A DNA stretch of 64,000 nucleotides from Gammaproteobacteria bacterium (GTDB lineage: Bacteria > Pseudomonadota > Gammaproteobacteria > Eutrophobiales > Eutrophobiaceae): assembly GCA_004297165.1 (NCBI GenBank), contig SCUJ01000008.1, forward strand, positions 62,001 through 126,000, given 5' to 3'. The position numbers and the translations under genes were made by a program. Below are positions 16,622 to 64,000 of the stretch, piece after piece (position 1 is the first letter of the stretch; every line of letters starts with the position of its first letter). The notes beneath the pieces were generated by a model. That model was not told the DNA's origin, searched no databases, and was given only the letters and a program-made list of their open reading frames with translations.

Positions 16622-16642
16622 GAACGACCAATGACAAATGAC
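16622..16642. repeat. 7-bp unit array (3 units), locus 1 of 4
   Basis: Three 7-bp units (GAACGAC, CAATGAC, AAATGAC) lie directly after the stop codon of the dikinase alpha-like gene; the last unit ends on the first base of that stop. The same unit family occurs near 36394, 52669 and 63604. Confidence 0.5.
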
Positions 16643-18456
16643 TAAAGAATCGTCACCACTCCGCGATCCCCGTCCACATGCAGCCTCTGCCCGGTCTTGA
16701 TGCGCTTCGTCGCATGCCCCGTCCCGACCACGGCGGGCATGCCGTATTCGCGCGCGACGATCGCCGCATGGGACATGGTGCCGCCGATGTCGGAGACCGC
16801 CGCCTTGATCTTGCCGAAGACCGGGGCCCAACTCGGCGCGGTCACCGGGCAGACCAGGATCTCGCCTTCGCGCATCTGGCCGATGTCGTTCACATCCAGC
16901 AACACCCGCGCCACGCCCTCCACCACGCCGGGCGAGGCGGCGTAGCCGCGCAGGATGTTCTCGCCGTCCTCCTCGGGGGGTCTCGACCAGGCGTCGAGCG
17001 TCTCGGAGGTAATCCCCCACAACATCTTCAGCGCGGGGTCTTCCACGCTCTCCGGGATGGGACCCAGCGCCGGCGGGGCCTGCCATTCCTTCAGCTTTTC
17101 GAGAATGCGCTTGCGCTCCGCCACCATGGGTTTCCAGCGCGGCCCGCCGACCGGCTGCGAACCCGCCGCCCAGGCCAGCATCACATCCACCAGCGCCTGC
17201 TCGGCCTCCGAATAATGCAGATGAAAGATGTCCCCGGCCTCCTCCAGCACGCCCTTGTTCGCAAGCAGCGCCCCGAATTCCCGCACCTTCAGGAAGAAGC
17301 GGGTCGTGTGCCAATGCTCGCAGTAGAACTTGTGATTCTCGACGAAGGGGAATACCCGGTGCGAGAGTCCCAGCATCTGATCGAAGGCCGCGCGATCCTC
17401 ATCTGTGGCCAGCAGCGCCCGGTATTCGTCGATGATCCGTTGGCGCTCGACCTTGAGCCGCTCCGTCGGGCGCTCCAGTGATTCGCCGTTCTGCACCTGC
17501 CGGATGTAGCGCGGCAGCGCGGAGAACGGCACCGAGAGGTCCTCGTTCCAACTGCGGTGATGATGATAGAAACCGTCCCCGGTGGAGAGATTGAACCAGG
17601 GATTGCGGGATTGCTCCAGCGCGAGCAGCCACTCCTCGCCCGCCCCGCCCGCGGCGCGGACCGCCGCCAGAATTTGCTGCGGATCGGCCTCGGGCACAAA
17701 CTTGTCGCCGATCCCGAGTTGCACGGCGAGCTTCGCCAGTTTCTTGAGTTCATCGTCCGGGCGAAACATGGTGACGTCGATGCCGGCCACCATGCGGGCC
17801 ACGGTCTGATCGGTGATCTCGGGGAAGGCCTTCTTGCAGAACTCGAAGAACACCACATAGGCCCCGTAACCCAGCATCAGGAATTCGAAATGGTGATGCC
17901 ACATCTTCGAATAATTCTCGATGCAGCGATGAAAGGCCTCGCGGACATAGTGATTCTGGGCGATGCCGGTGGCATTGGTGACGACCTTCTCATCCTCGAA
18001 CTCCGGCAGCGTGGGAACCTCGATGGCATCCATGTCGCGGATCAGTTGCTCGACCCGCACCTGCCATTCGCCGTAGAGTTTTTCCCAGTTCTCAAAATAA
18101 TAACCGGCCCGCTTCTGGAAGATCTCGGCCCGGCGGCCGATCTCCGCCGGGTCGGTGACCGCATAGGCGGTGATGTAGACCCGCCCGTTGACGATGCGGT
18201 GATCCACGCCCAGCGCCGTCGGGAAGGCGAACACGCGCGTGGTGAAGGCGCCCATACCGGTGTAGGGGACCTCGGCGGTGATCACGTCGAAGGCCGGCAT
18301 AGGCTCCGGGAAATGCATGGAGTTGTAAAACCAGAACTGCTTGTCATCCTCCGGCCGGAAGCGGGTGAAATACGGATACATCGTCTCCCAGCCCTCCGTG
18401 CCCGGCAGGGTCTCGATCTCGGAAGGCAGCGGGAAGGCGTGTTTTTTTGCGCTCAT
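16642..18456 (-). CDS. Dikinase phosphohistidine/substrate subunit (phenylphosphate synthase alpha-like)
   Basis: 604 aa. The swivelling phosphohistidine domain is at the C-terminus (DIGGTMSHAAIVAREYGMPA; catalytic His563). Residues 1-500 are the alpha-subunit-specific region expected to bind the phenolic substrate (FRPEDDKQFWFYNSMHFPEP, THRFFLKVREFG-like stretches). The layout matches PpsA of phenylphosphate synthase and the large subunit of the acetovanillone kinases, which make the aryl phosphate with ATP going to AMP plus phosphate. There is no PEP-binding TIM barrel, so it is not a PEP synthase. The gene starts 2 bp after the stop of the TIM-barrel gene. Substrate identity is inference from the neighbouring biotin carboxylase. 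Confidence 0.82.
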   Translation of the reverse strand: MSAKKHAFPLPSEIETLPGTEGWETMYPYFTRFRPEDDKQFWFYNSMHFPEPMPAFDVITAEVPYTGMGAFTTRVFAFPTALGVDHRIVNGRVYITAYAVTDPAEIGRRAEIFQKRAGYYFENWEKLYGEWQVRVEQLIRDMDAIEVPTLPEFEDEKVVTNATGIAQNHYVREAFHRCIENYSKMWHHHFEFLMLGYGAYVVFFEFCKKAFPEITDQTVARMVAGIDVTMFRPDDELKKLAKLAVQLGIGDKFVPEADPQQILAAVRAAGGAGEEWLLALEQSRNPWFNLSTGDGFYHHHRSWNEDLSVPFSALPRYIRQVQNGESLERPTERLKVERQRIIDEYRALLATDEDRAAFDQMLGLSHRVFPFVENHKFYCEHWHTTRFFLKVREFGALLANKGVLEEAGDIFHLHYSEAEQALVDVMLAWAAGSQPVGGPRWKPMVAERKRILEKLKEWQAPPALGPIPESVEDPALKMLWGITSETLDAWSRPPEEDGENILRGYAASPGVVEGVARVLLDVNDIGQMREGEILVCPVTAPSWAPVFGKIKAAVSDIGGTMSHAAIVAREYGMPAVVGTGHATKRIKTGQRLHVDGDRGVVTIL

Positions 18457-35117: not shown

Positions 35118-36419
35118 TCAGGTATTCAGCGCGCTTGGACTCCGGATGATCTCCGTCAGCGCCTTGAGCCACCTCGCCCCCGTGGCGCCGTCAATAATAC
35201 GATGATCGAGGGAGAGCGACAAGGCGATGACCGTGGCCACTGCGGGCGCGCCATCACGCGCCACGACAGCGGGCCGGGCGGCGCCCACCGCCAGGATCGC
35301 GCATTGCGGCGGATTGATGATGGCGTCGAAACTGTGTACCCCGTACATGCCCAGATTGGAGACGGTGAAGCTACCGCCCTCATAATCCTCCTTCGCCAGC
35401 GTCCCGGTCCGCGCCTTCTCCACCAGCGCGCGTGACTCGGCGGCGATCTCCGTGACGGATTTCGTCTCCGCGCGGCGCAGCACCGGGGTGATCAGGCCGC
35501 CTTCGATCGCGACAGCCAGGGCGATGTCGGCATGGCGGAACCGGCGGATGACGTTATCCACGAACTGGACATTGCATTCCGGCGCCCGCATGAGGGCGAG
35601 CGCGCACGCCTTGAGCAGCAGGTCGTTGAGCGAGACCTTCGATTGTGACTGACCCGCGGCCTGGTTGATCGTCTCGCGCAAGGCCAGCAGGGCGTCCACC
35701 TCGACCTCGACGTTGAGCCGGTAATGCGGCGCGGTCTGTTTCGCCTCCTGCAATCGCCGGGCGATGGTCTGGCGCATGCCGGTGAAGGGGATCTCGTCGT
35801 AGGCGGCTTCCTCCGCAATTGTTACCGGTGCTTTCCCAAGCGATCCCCCGGCCGCGATGATCGCCTGTTCGATATCGTCCACGGAGACGCGGCCATGGCG
35901 GCCGCTGCCTGCGATGTTGTTCAGGTTGATGCCAAGTTCCTGCGCGAGACGCCTTGCATGCGGCGAGGCGTTCACATTGCTGTCGTCACCGCCCTGCTTC
36001 AGTCGCTCCGGAACCACTGTAATGTTGCCCGTGGCGGTCTGCGGGGTAGCCGCCTTCGCGCTCGTCTCTGTCGCAGGCCCGGCCTGCATCTCGATCACCG
36101 CATCGGCGATCTTGAAGTCGGCGATGAAGGCATCGATGACAGACTCGGGGATATCGGCGTCGGCGATCACCGCGACCAGCGCGCCCACGGGCAAGGTCTC
36201 GTCCACGGCCTGCAAGCGTCTGCGCACCACGCCGGGATATTGGGACTCCAGCACATTTACAATCTTGCTGGATTCGATCTCCGCGACGGGATCGCCGGGG
36301 TTGACCCGATCGCCTTCCGCGACCAGCCAGTTGACCAGCGTTCCCTCCTCCATCGCCATCCCCCATTTGGGGACGGTCAGGGCTTTAATCTCCGTCATTT
36401 GTCCTCGGTCATTCGTCAT
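35118..36419 (-). CDS. 2-oxo acid/acetoin dehydrogenase E2 (dihydrolipoamide acyltransferase)
   Basis: 433 aa. A single lipoyl domain has the modification site ESSKI (Lys52), the form seen in AcoC-type E2 rather than ETDKA of PDH. A peripheral subunit-binding domain follows at about 147-182 (ASPHARRLAQELGINLNNIAGSG). The catalytic domain ends with DHRIIDG (His406, Asp410). The start is ambiguous: 36419 has AGGAA about 10 nt upstream, while 36398 matches family N-termini better. The extra MTNDRGQ would be encoded by 7-bp repeat units. Confidence 0.87.
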   Translation of the reverse strand: MTNDRGQMTEIKALTVPKWGMAMEEGTLVNWLVAEGDRVNPGDPVAEIESSKIVNVLESQYPGVVRRRLQAVDETLPVGALVAVIADADIPESVIDAFIADFKIADAVIEMQAGPATETSAKAATPQTATGNITVVPERLKQGGDDSNVNASPHARRLAQELGINLNNIAGSGRHGRVSVDDIEQAIIAAGGSLGKAPVTIAEEAAYDEIPFTGMRQTIARRLQEAKQTAPHYRLNVEVEVDALLALRETINQAAGQSQSKVSLNDLLLKACALALMRAPECNVQFVDNVIRRFRHADIALAVAIEGGLITPVLRRAETKSVTEIAAESRALVEKARTGTLAKEDYEGGSFTVSNLGMYGVHSFDAIINPPQCAILAVGAARPAVVARDGAPAVATVIALSLSLDHRIIDGATGARWLKALTEIIRSPSALNT

Positions 36420-36421
36420 GC
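36394..36421. repeat. 7-bp unit array (4 units), locus 2 of 4
   Basis: Units GTCATTT, GTCCTCG, GTCATTC and GTCATGC overlap the first codons of the E2 gene and start just after the stop of the small secreted protein gene. Confidence 0.45.
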
Positions 36422-52668: not shown

Positions 52669-52765
52669 GTCATTGGTCACTCGTCACTCGTCACTCGTCA
52701 TTTGTCATTTGTCATTTGAGATTTTGTAACAAGTGACCAGTGACAAATAACCAATGACCAGTGAC
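52669..52765. repeat. 7-bp unit arrays in inverted orientation, locus 3 of 4
   Basis: Left arm: GTCATTG, three GTCACTC, three GTCATTT, GAGATTT. Right arm: AAGTGAC, CAGTGAC, AAATAAC, CAATGAC, CAGTGAC, ending at the stop of the quinohemoprotein gene. The arms are inverted relative to each other and can fold into a long imperfect hairpin. Confidence 0.6.
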
Positions 52766-54933
52766 TAATTTGTTTCCGCCTTTAGTATATGCGCCTGCGC
52801 GACGATATAGGCGCGGATCGCTTCGATCTGTGCGGCATCCATCACCTCGGCGAAAGATACCATGCCCTTTTCCTTGAGATTGCCTTCGCCCACCACCGCA
52901 CGCCAGGACTCCGCGGTCAGGTTCATCGGGCTGTAGCGCAGATCCGCGATGACCCCGGAACTGACCCCGGAATCCCCGTGACAGGCCCCGCAGTAACCAT
53001 GATAGAGCGCCCAGCCTTGTTGAATGGTCGCGGCATCGGCGGATTGCTCCGGCGGATTCAAGACCCGCTCGGGCAGCGGCGCTGCGGGCGGCAGGGTCGC
53101 CGCGCCGTTCAGTTTGAAGGCCAGCACCCGGCTGAGGTTGCGTTTCTGCGAGGCCTTGTGAGAGATCGGTCCGGGCGCGACGCCGAAGATGCCGCCCCAA
53201 CCGGCCGCGACCGCGATGTATTGCTCGCCATTCACCGTATAACTGACCGGACCTGCGAGCACGCCGGATTGTGCGTCCATGGACCAGAGGCGTTCGCCAT
53301 TGTCCGCGCGATAGATGACAAATTCACCCGCGCCTTTGCCCTGGATCAGCAGATTCCCGGCCGTGGTGAGGATGCCGCCATTCCACGCCTCCTCATGCTG
53401 CACGCGCCAGACCTCCTTCTGTGCTGCCGGGTCCCAGGCGGCGAGGTGACCCACGACGCCCTGGATGATCTGATCGCGTACCGCAGGGTCCGGCGGCAGG
53501 CTGGCATCGGCCATTGAGATCCCTGTGTTGTATCCCAGCGCGTTAACCTTGTAATCCTTCACGGCGCTGTAGACGAAACCCGCCTCCTGTACCGGGATGT
53601 AGACCAGTCCCGTCAACGGACTGAAGGACATGGGTTGCCAGCTATGTGCGCCCGCGGGTCCGGGCATGGCGATCCAGGGTTTGCCGGCCGTACGGTACCG
53701 GGCCCCGGGATTTTCAATGGGCCGGCCGGTGCTCATGTCGATGCCGGTCGCCCAGTTGAGATTAATGAATGGATTGGCCGAGATGAGTTCGCCGGTCGCG
53801 CGATCAAGCACATAAAAGTAACCGTTCTTCGGGGCCTGCATCAGGACCTTGCGCGAGGTCCCCTCGAGGATCAGGTCCGCGAGGATGATGTGCTGGGTCG
53901 CTGTGTAGTCCCAGTTATCTCCGGGCGTGGTCTGATAATGCCAGACGTATTCGCCGGTTTCGGCCTTCAACGCGACGATGGAGGACAGGAACAGGTTGTC
54001 GCCGCCGCCGGGACTGCGGATGTCGCGATCCCACGGCGAGCCGTTGCCCACGCCGATGTAGAGCAGATCGAGCTCCGGGTCATAGGCCATGGAATCCCAG
54101 ACCGTGCCCCCGCCGCCCTGCGTCCACCATTCGCCGTTCCAGGTCTTGGCGGCCATCTCCAGCGCGTGATTCTCGAAGCCGTCCGCGGGATTGCCGGGCA
54201 CGGTGTAAAAACGCCAGAGCTGCTCGCCCGTGCCGGCGTCGTAGGCGGTGACATAACCGCGCACGCCGAATTCCGCGCCGCCGTTCCCGATGATCACCTT
54301 GCCGTCGATGATCCGGGGCGCACCCGTGATCGTGTAGGACCTGGATTGATCCACGGTGACCACCTCCCAGGCAACCTTGCCGCTCCCGGCATCGAGCGCC
54401 ACCAGACGGCCATCCAGCGTGCCTAGGTAAACGCGGTTGCCCCACACCGCGGCGCCCCGGTTGACCGAATCGCAACAGGCCTTAACCCCGGTGGCGCGCG
54501 GCACCTTCGGGTCGTAGGTCCAGAGGAGTCTGCCGGTCGCCGCATCGAGCGCCTTGACCATGCTCCAGGCGGTGGTCACGAACATCCGCCCATCCACCAC
54601 GATGGGCGTGGATTCCTGGCCCCGGTTCGTATCCAGATCGAAAGACCAGGCAAGGCCAAGTGCGCCGATATTTTCGACATTAATCTGATCGAGCGGACTG
54701 AAGCGCTGCTCGCTGTAAGTGCGCCCGTGGGTCAGCCAGTTGCCCGGTTCCGCATCGGCGTTGACAAGCCGCGCGGCATCCACGGCTGCGGAGGCCATCG
54801 CCTTGACCTGCGGGGGCGGGCTCTCCGGGGTTTGCGTCTGGGCCGGCTGGTCCTGTGAACAACCGCTGAGCAAACTGAACAGCGCGCCTGTCAGCGCTGA
54901 ATGGACGATGCTGCGCGAGTGGTGCTTGAACAT
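52765..54933 (-). CDS. PQQ-dependent quinohemoprotein alcohol dehydrogenase (second paralogue, lipoprotein)
   Basis: 722 aa from the ATG at 54933 (GGGGGAA upstream). Lipobox LLSGC lies near residue 24. The propeller shows DAATGRLLWTYDPKVPRATG, the vicinal disulfide pair in VKACCDSVNRG, and the catalytic Asp in GDNWDYTATQ. The C-terminal cytochrome c site is CGACHG with GMVSF as probable distal Met. It is clearly related to the gene at 22463 but differs in the substrate-side loops and linker, so it is an older paralogue. It stands alone between the MshQ-like gene and a divergent SHOCT gene. Confidence 0.9.
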   Translation of the reverse strand: MFKHHSRSIVHSALTGALFSLLSGCSQDQPAQTQTPESPPPQVKAMASAAVDAARLVNADAEPGNWLTHGRTYSEQRFSPLDQINVENIGALGLAWSFDLDTNRGQESTPIVVDGRMFVTTAWSMVKALDAATGRLLWTYDPKVPRATGVKACCDSVNRGAAVWGNRVYLGTLDGRLVALDAGSGKVAWEVVTVDQSRSYTITGAPRIIDGKVIIGNGGAEFGVRGYVTAYDAGTGEQLWRFYTVPGNPADGFENHALEMAAKTWNGEWWTQGGGGTVWDSMAYDPELDLLYIGVGNGSPWDRDIRSPGGGDNLFLSSIVALKAETGEYVWHYQTTPGDNWDYTATQHIILADLILEGTSRKVLMQAPKNGYFYVLDRATGELISANPFINLNWATGIDMSTGRPIENPGARYRTAGKPWIAMPGPAGAHSWQPMSFSPLTGLVYIPVQEAGFVYSAVKDYKVNALGYNTGISMADASLPPDPAVRDQIIQGVVGHLAAWDPAAQKEVWRVQHEEAWNGGILTTAGNLLIQGKGAGEFVIYRADNGERLWSMDAQSGVLAGPVSYTVNGEQYIAVAAGWGGIFGVAPGPISHKASQKRNLSRVLAFKLNGAATLPPAAPLPERVLNPPEQSADAATIQQGWALYHGYCGACHGDSGVSSGVIADLRYSPMNLTAESWRAVVGEGNLKEKGMVSFAEVMDAAQIEAIRAYIVAQAHILKAETN

Positions 54934-55108
54934 GCAGAGTTCCCCCGGGTGATTTTTTCGCTGGAGTATATTATATACCCGCAAGTTTGAATTGGGCCGC
55001 GCGGCGTGCATCGCGCGCCACCGCCGAATTGCTGGTAGACTATCGCGCCATAATTCTTATCCGACCGCGATTGAATGCGGGTACTTCCATAATAACGAGG
55101 TGGAAACG

Positions 55109-61847: not shown

Positions 61848-63590
61848 CTACGCCCCCATCGGCGGGACGCCGTAAAGGCTCTCGCGTGGTGGCTGCCGCG
61901 TGCGCATGCGGGCGAGGACCTCGGGGGCCACGTCGAAGACGAGGGAGTGGCCAGGACCGATGCCCTCCTTCGTCAGACATTCCGCCAGGGCATCGTCTGC
62001 GGGCTTGAAGCCGGCGCGGTCATTGAAGGTCCACTCGTCCTGCAGGCAGCGCCAACCGAACCCGGCTATGTCCTCGCGACCCACCTCGCGGCCGAGGTAA
62101 AGGCTGTAAAACTCACGCACCTCATCCAGGGTCGGCGCAAGGAAGGCGCAGAAGCCCGAGGAATCGACTACGGCGTTGACGATCTGGGTCTCCTGCGAGG
62201 CCAGCAGGGCGTCCTCGTCGCTCTGGTTCGGCACGATGACGAAACCGGCGGTGTGGTCGGCGCCCATGGCGCTGGTGCAGTAGGTGATGCCGGCGGACTT
62301 CAGCGGCCGCGGGTCCCAGGCCGGCAGGGCCTGACCCCTAGCCACGGGCACGCGGGCGTGTTTGCGTTTGCGGCCAACGTGTGCGGCGCCGTTGCCCACA
62401 TCCAGCGTGGTCTCGCTCCGCTGGTCGATGGCGCGCAGCAGGTTCTTCGCCGCCTTGGCGTCCCCCCACGGCATCCCGCCGCTGTCCATCAGCACCGCGA
62501 TCGCCGCGCCGGTCTCGATGGTGTCGAGCCCGACCTCGTCGCAGAGGCGATCGAGGTCCGCCACATCCTCCCAGCGGTTGATGTCACAACTGGAGCCGAG
62601 CAGGGAAAGGGTCTCGAATTCCAGACCCGAGGTCAGATACTCGCCATTTTCATCATGGACGACGTTGGAACACTGCACGATGCAGCCGGCGAGGCAGTTG
62701 TGCATCCCGCCGCCGCGTTTCTCGAAGGTCTCGCGGATATGATTGCCGTCGAGGGTGTCGACGTGCGGGTTCTGGCCTTCGGTGCGGTTGCGATACGGCA
62801 GGGTATTGAGCATGTTCGCGAGCGGCACCGCCGTGGCCGTGCCGTGACGGAACATCTCGTAGCGGGGGCTGCTGCGATAGATCTTGCTGAAGGATTTGTT
62901 CAAGGCGGCGAACGCCTTCTGATTGACGGCCTGCCGGGCGGACAACTTGCCTGGGTCCACGAACACCCATTTCAGGCATTTCGAACCCATCACCGCGCCC
63001 ACGCCCCCGCGGGCGGCATGCCGCGCCGGCCGCCGGCTCTTGGAGTTATCGGTGGTGGCGACGGAGGCGCCCTTCAACATCAACTCCCCGGCCGGGCCGA
63101 TGGAGATAGCCGAGGCGGTGGCGGAACGGGTCAGCAACTTGGCGCAGGAGGCATAGTTCCACATCCCCTTGAAATCATCCGCGCGTTCCAGGGTCACGCC
63201 CTGTTCCGTGACCACCAGCCCCCAGCGGCCGTCGCGATTGGCCGGTTGTCCGGTGACGATAATCGCGCGGTATCCGAGCCTTCCCAGGTGTTGCCCGGGG
63301 TCGCCGCCGGAGTTGGCCTCCTTGATGCCGCCGGTCAGCGGACTCTTGCAACCGACCGAGATCCGTCCGGAGGTGGGCGCGGAGGTCCCCGCGAGCAGCC
63401 CCGGCGCCAGGACCAGGATATTATCCGGACCGAGCGGGTCGCAGGCGGGATTGCATTCCTCAAGCAGGATCCGCGCGGACAGCGCCCGCCCGCCGAGCAT
63501 CCGCCACTTTTCGGGGTAGTCCGTGATGGTGACGCTCTGGTCGGTCATGTTGACGCGTATCAGCTTGTCGACGGTGGGGGTCTGGTTCAC
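61848..63590 (-). CDS. Aldehyde:ferredoxin oxidoreductase (tungsten-type, AOR family)
   Basis: 580 aa from the GTG at 63590, which has GAGGAG 6 nt upstream. An ATG at 63614 lies inside the 7-bp repeats and is less likely. N-terminal cofactor domain: MLGGRALSARILLEE, APTSGRISVGCKSPLT, GGVGAVMGSKCLK. The Fe-S cysteines are C299, C303, C307 (HNCLAGCIVQC) and C481 (SSGFCAF). The first triplet is spaced C-x3-C-x3-C, not the C-x2-C-x3-C of archaeal AOR. It converts aldehydes to acids with a tungsten-bispterin; tupABC in this window can supply tungstate. It is divergent from the CocE-type gene. Confidence 0.87.
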   Translation of the reverse strand: MNQTPTVDKLIRVNMTDQSVTITDYPEKWRMLGGRALSARILLEECNPACDPLGPDNILVLAPGLLAGTSAPTSGRISVGCKSPLTGGIKEANSGGDPGQHLGRLGYRAIIVTGQPANRDGRWGLVVTEQGVTLERADDFKGMWNYASCAKLLTRSATASAISIGPAGELMLKGASVATTDNSKSRRPARHAARGGVGAVMGSKCLKWVFVDPGKLSARQAVNQKAFAALNKSFSKIYRSSPRYEMFRHGTATAVPLANMLNTLPYRNRTEGQNPHVDTLDGNHIRETFEKRGGGMHNCLAGCIVQCSNVVHDENGEYLTSGLEFETLSLLGSSCDINRWEDVADLDRLCDEVGLDTIETGAAIAVLMDSGGMPWGDAKAAKNLLRAIDQRSETTLDVGNGAAHVGRKRKHARVPVARGQALPAWDPRPLKSAGITYCTSAMGADHTAGFVIVPNQSDEDALLASQETQIVNAVVDSSGFCAFLAPTLDEVREFYSLYLGREVGREDIAGFGWRCLQDEWTFNDRAGFKPADDALAECLTKEGIGPGHSLVFDVAPEVLARMRTRQPPRESLYGVPPMGA

Positions 63591-63603
63591 AGGAATCTCC
63601 TCA

Positions 63604-63735
63604 TCATTGGTCATTGGTCATTGGTCACTGGTCACTGGTCAGTGGTCAGTGGTCAGCGATTATTGGTCAGTGGATACAGTGGGCGTTATCGAAAGTATAC
63701 TAATGACGAATGACTAATGACCAGTGACAAATGAC
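63604..63735. repeat. 7-bp unit arrays in inverted orientation, locus 4 of 4
   Basis: Left arm, ten units in register (63604-63673): three TCATTGG, two TCACTGG, two TCAGTGG, TCAGCGA, TTATTGG, TCAGTGG. Right arm, five units (63701-63735): TAATGAC, GAATGAC, TAATGAC, CAGTGAC, AAATGAC. The arms are inverted and span the whole region between the divergent AOR and CocE-type starts. Confidence 0.65.
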
Positions 63736-64000
63736 CCACTCCAGTTTCAGCTATCGCTACCGCACCCCGCTCGGGCCGCCCGAGGAGCGCAAGGGCGCGC
63801 CGCCGGTGTATCGCCGCAGCATCGCCGACGGAATGATCATCGAGAAGGATGTCGCGGTCACCCTGCGCGATGGCGTGCGGATCTACATCGATGTCTTTCG
63901 CCCGGAGAATGAGAAACCCGCGCCCTCGCTGATCGCCTGGGGTCCCTACGGCAAGCATGGCCATACCAACTACCATGAGCGTTTTCCCAACTGCGGCGTG
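63731..64000 (+). CDS. CocE/NonD-type (X-Pro dipeptidyl-peptidase S15) hydrolase, N-terminal part
   Basis: Ninety codons are visible before the window ends. The opening YRYRTPLGPPEERKGAPPVY and IEKDVAVTLRDGVRIYIDVF, then LIAWGPYGKHGH, match CocE/NonD family alpha/beta-hydrolases (S15), where the conserved phrase DGVRL..D.YRP starts the catalytic domain. No signal peptide is present. The ATG at 63731 lies within the last 7-bp repeat unit. Catalytic Ser, Asp and His lie beyond the window. An ester or amide substrate is likely; specificity is unknown. Confidence 0.75.
   Translation, partial: MTHSSFSYRYRTPLGPPEERKGAPPVYRRSIADGMIIEKDVAVTLRDGVRIYIDVFRPENEKPAPSLIAWGPYGKHGHTNYHERFPNCGV

What the first reader, a model, noticed from the sequence alone, without database searches (positions are those of the whole stretch)
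63604..63735. Dyad arrays of 7-bp units at gene boundaries (also 16622, 36394, 52669)
Four loci carry tandem 7-mers of the GTCATTT/TCATTGG/TGACCAG family. At the two largest, the units run in opposite orientation on two arms, so they can form long hairpins. They abut stop or start codons exactly, and at the E2 and AOR genes they create spurious ATG starts (MTND...). This looks like a replicating or slippage-prone element that may tune expression.
Basis: seen in the sequence. Interest (0 to 1): 0.55.

Follow-up and report, generated by a model that had tools for sequence, protein, structure and literature searches.

The report
Head-to-head 7-base repeats between genes
Many gaps between genes in this bacterium are filled with runs of a slightly variable 7-base word that face each other in one fixed orientation; the same layout turns up in distant bacteria with other 7-base words, and what writes it is unknown.

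Summary
The window has 18 two-unit matches to GTCANTN (0.04 expected). The genome has 122 (3 in the reversed control), in at least 30 clusters, 10 with two arms. Units keep GTCA-T and vary at positions 5 and 7.

The main new result is polarity. Arms face each other (GTCANTN, then NANTGAC): 398 matches against 5 opposite in 29 genomes, 24 of them chosen for holding the dyad. Neighbouring period-7 runs of any sequence obey a wider rule: left arm G/T-rich, right arm A/C-rich, 63:5 in two Nostoc segments and 42:1 in other loci; control periods 5, 6 and 9 do not. It holds for arms that are not complementary (13:2, 13:1).

Between two Nostoc species, unit numbers differ and two spacers carry unrelated heptamer families. 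In this genome, arms do not match at the variable positions beyond shuffling. Reverse transcriptase and Ku domains were not found here.

This belongs with a known, unexplained kind: the convergent GGGANTN pairs of Xanthomonas (PMC4692102). Most likely it is a product of polar DNA synthesis in 7-nt steps. A role in tuning expression is untested.

The parts
16622..16642 (-). One-armed array: two strict units and one degenerate; overlaps the stop codon of the PEP-utiliser ORF 16642-18456 (-)
36394..36421 (+). Degenerate four-unit array at the start of the E2 ORF 35118-36419 (-); opens a frame reading MTND
   Evidence: units read by eye
52669..52717 (+). Left arm of dyad: seven GTCANTN units
52732..52765 (-). 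Right arm of dyad: NANTGAC units, one of them degenerate; overlaps the stop codon of the PQQ dehydrogenase ORF 52765-55011 (-)
63604..63657 (+). Left arm of dyad, next to the RBS-like AGGAG and GTG of the AOR gene (-)
63658..63701 (.). Middle of the dyad, with degenerate units; a promoter-like match on the - strand (63723-63694) lies across its right side
   Evidence: consensus match only
63702..63735 (-). Right arm of dyad: NANTGAC units; its last ATGAC is the start (63731) of the + strand ORF that runs off the window

Best explanation
These are convergent heptamer repeat dyads: one or two runs of a 7-bp unit in a spacer, with the G/T-rich strand reading away from the flanking gene and towards the other arm. 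I think they are products of DNA synthesis rather than a regulatory element. Something in replication or repair of intergenic DNA reiterates in 7-nt steps and preferentially lengthens the G/T-rich 3' end, separately from each side of a lesion or stalled fork, until the two sides are rejoined. Selection decides how close to the genes the product may come. Later changes are gain and loss of units and substitutions at the loose positions. Shown: the 7-bp period, the polarity, the placement at gene edges; and, in Nostoc, differences in unit number and different heptamer families in orthologous spacers. Inferred: the 3'-extension step, the lesion, the rejoining and the enzyme.
For: Polarity regardless of unit sequence: 63:5 in 800 kb of Nostoc, 42:1 in loci with the selected dyads removed, 8:0 in G000 loci plus window, 6:0 in G003 loci; control periods 5, 6, 9 give 0:1, 3:4, 1:1. 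Spacers without runs give 21:7 for keto and 47:40 for G-skew, against 63:5 and 50:7 for the heptamer pairs. It holds without any GTCA unit (31:3, 26:1) and for arms differing at 3 or more of 7 positions (13:2, 13:1), which a mirror copy or a selected hairpin does not predict. GGGANTN dyads 6:0 in 2 of 29 genomes. Dyads more than 100 bp from both called genes are still 8:1. Two orthologous spacers hold unrelated heptamer dyads in sister species (A4, B3). In G000, 10 of 10 two-armed clusters have the same order.
Against: No enzyme is known: RVT_1 and Ku were not found in G000, G003 or G060. The far-from-gene count is small (9 dyads) and depends on a home-made gene caller. Runs 31-100 bp from a stop (10:26) and over 100 bp from a start (11:22) show the reverse orientation to their nearest edge; I take these for the far arm of a dyad but did not test it. 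Spacers without runs already lean the same way in keto content (21:7). Most arrays with an ortholog in the Nostoc pair are shared, so births are not frequent. Neighbouring pairs with both arms alike also occur (KK 13, MM 8 of 108 in Nostoc).
Confidence: 0.38

Rival explanations
1. Ordinary replication slippage makes heptamer arrays in both orientations, and selection at gene edges removes one of them: G/U-rich leaders would hide start sites, and C-rich stretches after stop codons would attract Rho.
For: Within 30 bp of a gene edge the G/T strand reads away from the gene in 53 of 57 runs at starts and 82 of 94 at stops. Heptamers are the commonest long simple repeats in most genomes, and a polymerase explanation has been proposed (Mrazek 2007, as told in PMC4679880, section 3). 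Whole-unit differences occur.
Against: Dyads over 100 bp from both genes are still 8:1. G-skew polarity is absent from run-free spacers (47:40). Adjacent units in G000 are barely more alike than distant ones. It does not by itself explain why the two arms of a spacer are usually of one family (50 complementary against 13 not, among Nostoc KM pairs).
Confidence: 0.27
2. A selected hairpin (attenuator, mRNA stabiliser, insulator or terminator) formed by the two arms.
For: Strong predicted RNA folding of the window arrays. In the non-cyanobacterial loci mirrored units match at positions 5 and 7 more than shuffled (0.616 against 0.419). Some dyads are near-perfect palindromes (A10; L076).
Against: No such match in G000 (0.483 against 0.509) or the Nostoc pair (0.509 against 0.572); the non-cyanobacterial set mixes genomes. 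20 of 30 clusters in G000 have one arm. No terminator-like site at 63400-64000; no Rfam match in the window or four loci. Unlike arms keep the polarity. The neighbours in the window share no function.
Confidence: 0.12
3. A mobile palindromic element (REP, MITE or SDR kind) with GTCA ends spreads the dyad, and slippage later multiplies its units.
For: In G427 and G429 many short dyads share an inner sequence. A fixed polarity follows if all copies descend from one element. Heptamers sit inside MITE-like inserts in Nostoc.
Against: Loops in G000 look unrelated to each other (by eye). The polarity holds for many unrelated families. Transposases were not searched.
Confidence: 0.12
4. A telomerase-like reverse transcriptase adds a templated heptamer to both 3' ends of a break.
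For: The geometry is that of two head-to-head telomere additions. DRT10 shows that bacterial reverse transcriptases can write tandem repeats (PMC12632851; abstract and two results sections read).
Against: RVT_1 not found in G000, G003 or G060; of the 15 of 55 genomes that have it, 13 had no match to the array pattern or its control, though G006 and G010 have both. DRT10 products are reported as protein-primed single-stranded DNA with a template-fixed unit (9 nt in Eco3DRT10). Units vary at fixed positions within one array, which one template would not give.
Confidence: 0.02

Closest known systems
GGGAATC (GGGANTN) repeats of Xanthomonas and GGGGA(C/T)T of Nostoc (Rehm et al. 2015, PMC4692102; passages and sections 10 and 16 read)
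   Same: Seven-bp unit with positions 1-4 and 6 kept; 70 and 75 convergent pairs in two Xanthomonas genomes; mostly intergenic; nearer to the 5' neighbouring ORF (28 against 160 nt on average), that is, the G-rich strand reads away from the gene; length and sequence vary between related species; no role found.
   Different: GTCA instead of GGGA, so no G-quadruplex is expected from GTCANTN; here the rule is extended to many unit families and to unlike arms. [quoted passage not shown]
TAACTGA repeats of Beggiatoaceae, cyanobacteria and Bacteroidetes (MacGregor 2015, PMC4679880; abstract and sections 3, 8, 10 read)
   Same: Heptamer, intergenic, patchy across phyla, most often just in front of start codons in one direction; one base away from NANTGAC and in the same direction.
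   Different: Almost only direct repeats (169 sets and one indirect in the type genome), little unit variation; proposed as a translational regulator site.
Tandem heptamers (STRR) and small dispersed repeats of filamentous cyanobacteria (recalled; papers not seen; one passage of PMC4692102 mentions heptanucleotides in Calothrix)
   Same: Heptamers in variable spacers of Nostocales.
   Different: Recalled only; a polarity rule is not something I recall from them.
REP / REPIN palindromes (search listings of PMC3116915 and PMC3733652 only)
   Same: Small, palindromic, dispersed, intergenic.
   Different: No conserved body seen in G000; heptamer units; a transposase link was not tested.

Membership tests
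Convergent heptamer repeats (Xanthomonas GGGANTN kind) | Tandem 7-bp unit with kept and free positions | tested here: met
   Strict patterns; positions 5 and 7 free (position 1 is fixed by the pattern used there)
Convergent heptamer repeats (Xanthomonas GGGANTN kind) | Pairs in convergent orientation | tested here: met
   10 of 10 two-armed clusters in G000; 11:0 strict matches in G000
Convergent heptamer repeats (Xanthomonas GGGANTN kind) | Intergenic, beginning close to a gene edge | tested here: met
   Of 20 one-armed clusters 13 clear, 1 opposite, 6 ambiguous
Convergent heptamer repeats (Xanthomonas GGGANTN kind) | G-quadruplex-forming unit | tested here: not met
   GTCANTN has no run of three G; read from the unit. 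This feature defines the published subset, so I file the arrays as a variant of the kind, not as that repeat
TAACTGA repeats | Invariant unit TAACTGA | tested here: not met
   G000 has 0 three-unit matches to the reversed control TNACTGN, which TAACTGA fits
Intrinsic terminator | G+C-rich stem followed by a T run | tested here: not met
   0 sites at 63400-64000; the other three arrays were not scanned
REP / MITE | Conserved body and a transposase link | tested here: inconclusive
   Loops in G000 unlike by eye; shared inner sequences in G427 and G429; transposases not searched
Telomerase-like / DRT10 product | Resident reverse transcriptase and a template RNA | tested here: not met
   No RVT_1 match in G000; template RNA not searched
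Phase-variable simple sequence repeat | Unit number differs between strains of one species | not testable with these tools
   No second strain; only between-species differences in Nostoc

The most novel reading that the evidence does not exclude
Bacteria have a general, sequence-flexible process that writes G/T-rich heptamers in 7-nt steps onto the 3' ends of broken or stalled intergenic DNA, from both sides, leaving a head-to-head scar like two fused telomeres. Unit families such as GTCANTN, GGGANTN and TAACTGA are different outputs of this one process, with a common frame G--A-T- (48 of 183 distinct non-GTCA consensus units fit; 33 expected from letter permutations, 1 of 200 reaching it; related units are not independent).
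Probability: 0.12. Interest if true: 0.88.

Novelty: new variant of a known kind. Interest (0 to 1): 0.52.

Why it matters
Heptamer repeats have been on record in bacteria for years without an explanation for the number seven or for their placement. The data here tie repeats from this genome, Nostoc and other phyla, and, through the literature, Xanthomonas and the Beggiatoaceae, to one orientation rule that does not depend on the sequence of the unit. The rule can be tested directly and any mechanism must explain it. If it reflects synthesis and not selection, it points to a mutational process that fills bacterial spacers and that I know no name for.

Tried and rejected
Telomerase-like reverse transcriptase: no RVT_1 match in G000, G003, G060; found in 15 of 55, G006 and G010 (with few or related arrays) among them. 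Classical end joining: no Ku in G000, G003, G060 or in seven cyanobacterial genomes (G421, G425, G430, G434, G435, G447, G500); 6 of 45 have it, all six from dyad-bearing genomes; the array-poor relatives tested have none either, so the test does not separate. Snap-back priming of the G/T strand through G-T wobble: of 14 idealised units 10 fold on neither strand; among real runs the keto strand folds better in 46 against 16 in Nostoc and 77 against 48 in loci, with most equal and tiny mean differences, and in G000 it is 2 against 8; not supported, not excluded. Hairpin selection: see rivals. Rfam: 0 matches at the gathering threshold in window, L135, L049, L057, L154. Seeding by the start codon: guaA begins ATGAC in 16 of 26 printed relatives by eye, nearly all without arrays, so some arrays may be anchored on a gene's own start, but this does not explain stop-side arms. 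Simple slippage by identity of adjacent units: weak in G000, clearer in G003 (30 of 84 adjacent against 7 of 67 far). Empty-site search in Nostoc: 0 of 31 clusters of G500 and 10 of 42 of G447 had an array-free shorter ortholog; by eye these were mostly composite or MITE-like inserts.

Weak points: 24 of the 29 genomes were chosen because they hold the convergent dyad, and overlapping matches within one array count more than once. In one search the group named cyano_call19 includes L111-L143, whose titles were not shown, and L112 is in a Nitrospinae genome. Gene edges come from a home-made codon model, which can run a gene start into an array, as at AOR. In one search only the 30 best-matching of 60 genomes became loci, L200 was not parsed and starts were miscalled for L198 and L202. 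One search listed only part of its 122 places, so the cluster count is a minimum. In one search units were picked by their consensus in one genome, which lowers the apparent change at kept positions.

Full report
What is there. The window holds four arrays of a 7-bp unit at gene boundaries. The strict two-unit pattern GTCANTNGTCANT occurs 18 times, with 0.04 expected from shuffles. The two large arrays have a left arm reading GTCANTN and a right arm reading NANTGAC. The neighbours share no function: aldehyde:ferredoxin oxidoreductase, a DUF6701 protein, a PQQ dehydrogenase with cytochrome c, a 2-oxoacid dehydrogenase E2, and PPDK and PEP-utiliser proteins.

Genome scale. G000 (3.53 Mb, 13 contigs, 98.95% complete) has 122 two-unit matches against 3 for the reversed pattern and 78 three-unit matches against 0. 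I fetched the listed sites and counted 30 clusters, three of them in the window; one search showed only part of its places, so 30 is a minimum. Ten clusters have both arms, all in the same order. Of the 20 one-armed clusters, the end that begins with GTCA is clearly the nearer to a gene edge in 13, clearly the farther in one (L148), and in six it is unclear because the spacer is filled or a neighbour was not called. In 7 right-hand arms the called start codon of the next gene is the ATGAC of the last unit. The caller can run too far into an array, as at AOR, but for guaA the relatives back it (16 of 26 printed begin ATGAC, by eye).

Distribution. Of 116 genomes, G000 included, 8 have a three-unit match. 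G003 of the same family has 120, while G001 of the same genus has none. Of 369 genomes of the class only G000 has the strict dyad (G003 was not in that draw). A scan of the named species collection stopped at its limit with 113 stretches. Of the 80 rows shown, 46 are cyanobacterial by title; 34 are from others, among them Planctomycetes, Nitrospirae, Nitrospinae, Saprospiraceae, Prolixibacteraceae, Acidobacteria, Akkermansiaceae, Chloroflexi, Alpha- and Deltaproteobacteria. The arrays are patchy and cross phyla. No tool names the window's organism; its GuaA matches solved GMP synthetases such as 1gpm, which I recall as the E. coli enzyme.

Polarity. In 29 genomes the order GTCANTN then NANTGAC gives 398 matches in 27 genomes, the opposite order 5 matches in 3. 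Because 24 of the genomes were chosen for the first order, I made a test that ignores the unit's sequence. In 800 kb of two Nostoc genomes I took all period-7 runs and their neighbouring pairs (108 pairs): left G/T-rich and right A/C-rich 63, the reverse 5, both G/T-rich 13, both A/C-rich 8, unclear 19. Control periods 5, 6 and 9 gave 0:1, 3:4 and 1:1; periods 8 and 10 gave no pairs. In the 113 loci, with the selected dyads and 150 bp around them removed, the count was 42:1; in G000 loci plus window 8:0; in G003 loci 6:0. Without any GTCA unit it was 31:3 and 26:1; for arms differing at 3 or more of 7 positions 13:2 and 13:1. GGGANTN dyads: 6:0, in 2 of the 29 genomes. As background, 219 Nostoc spacers without runs give 21:7 for keto content and 47:40 for G-skew, so there is a mild lean in base composition, well short of 63:5 and 50:7. 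Binomial values are; the counts are not all independent.

Relation to genes. In the Nostoc segments, runs within 30 bp of a called gene edge have the G/T strand reading away from the gene in 53 of 57 cases at starts and 82 of 94 at stops. At 31-100 bp the figures are 27:11 at starts and 10:26 at stops, and beyond 100 bp 11:22 and 15:11. I read the reversed ones as the far arm of a dyad, untested. Dyads more than 100 bp from both genes are 8:1. So selection at gene edges may contribute but does not look sufficient; the last count is small.

Change over time. In the rplR-rpsE spacer of the 30 best-matching of 60 Nostoc-family genomes, 27 of 29 parsed spacers have tandem heptamers by eye; L206 and L207 have none; unit variants differ between species. 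In 400 kb of G500 against 400 kb of G447 (most blocks 86-96% identical), arrays with an ortholog are mostly shared: 27 of 31 and 25 of 42. Some differ by whole units (A11: 110 against 124 bp), though only 19 of 81 gaps are multiples of 7. In two spacers the families are unrelated: at A4 a GTCATTN dyad in G500 faces an AGTGAGG...CATAACT dyad in G447; at B3 a GTCATTA dyad in G447 faces a GGGGACT...AATCCCC dyad in G500. The flanking sequence is the same.

Hairpin or not. The window arrays fold well as RNA (z -6.9 and -6.0), and less so as DNA (z -6.3 and -2.6). But positions 5 and 7 do not match across arms beyond shuffling in G000 or the Nostoc pair. They do in the pooled non-cyanobacterial loci (0.616 against 0.419), where genomes are mixed. 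One-armed clusters are the majority in G000. I conclude, with moderate confidence, that in this genome the hairpin is a by-product of convergent arms rather than the selected feature.

Mechanism. A polar, sequence-flexible, 7-nt-stepped process of synthesis fits the polarity, the unlike arms, the placement and the family switch. Two candidate machines were sought and not found in G000: a reverse transcriptase domain and Ku. A third idea, snap-back priming by a wobbling G/T strand, got no clear support. Enzyme and initiating event are therefore inferred only. The main rival is ordinary slippage with selection against one orientation near genes.

What is known. Rehm et al. 2015 (PMC4692102) described GGGANTN repeats in Xanthomonas with the same kept and free positions, convergent pairs (70 and 75 cases) and a short distance to the 5' neighbouring ORF; they considered quadruplexes and found no role, and in Nostoc they saw few pairs of GGGGA(C/T)T. 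MacGregor 2015 (PMC4679880) described TAACTGA repeats, mostly in front of start codons; the unit is one base from NANTGAC and runs in the same direction. G010, of the window's family, has 53 matches to the reversed control pattern, which TAACTGA would fit; their letters were not shown. My paper searches showed no paper on GTCANTN arrays or on a polarity rule across heptamer families; the library lacks most subscription journals, and older cyanobacterial work on heptamers is only recalled. The arrays are best filed as a new variant of this known, unexplained kind.

Noticed in passing
G427 (genome of L049) and G429 (genome of L057), places: Many short dyads share an inner sequence (AAAAG...CTTTT-like in G427; a TTAAAGCC...GG-like core in G429), which looks like a dispersed palindromic element with GTCA ends.
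   Followed up: no
L258-L277 (G447), spacers B6-B9: A palindromic insert with GAGACGCGATTAATCGCGTCT sits inside heptamer arrays at sites where G500 has uninterrupted units; it resembles a small dispersed repeat of Nostoc (name recalled).
   Followed up: no
L216 (G006), guaB-guaA spacer: The sequence after the guaB stop is an inverted copy of the guaA start region (about 17 bp identical by eye), as if the spacer had been made by copying back from the gene start.
   Followed up: no
L163, L164, L158 (G000): Other heptamers (CTATCCC; ACAACGG with ACAACTG) continue NANTGAC runs in the same A/C-rich direction.
   Followed up: partly
G010 and G060: Relatives rich in the reversed control pattern TNACTGN (53 and 48 matches), which TAACTGA would fit; G060 also has long uniform GTCAGTT arrays at contig ends.
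   Followed up: no
L167 (G000): A four-unit array lies between a coding end and what reads like the 5' end of the tmRNA gene (by eye; no tmRNA finder was run).
   Followed up: no
window 63694-63723, - strand: A promoter-like match whose first hexamer TGGTCA is an array unit (1 found, 0.2 expected).
   Followed up: no
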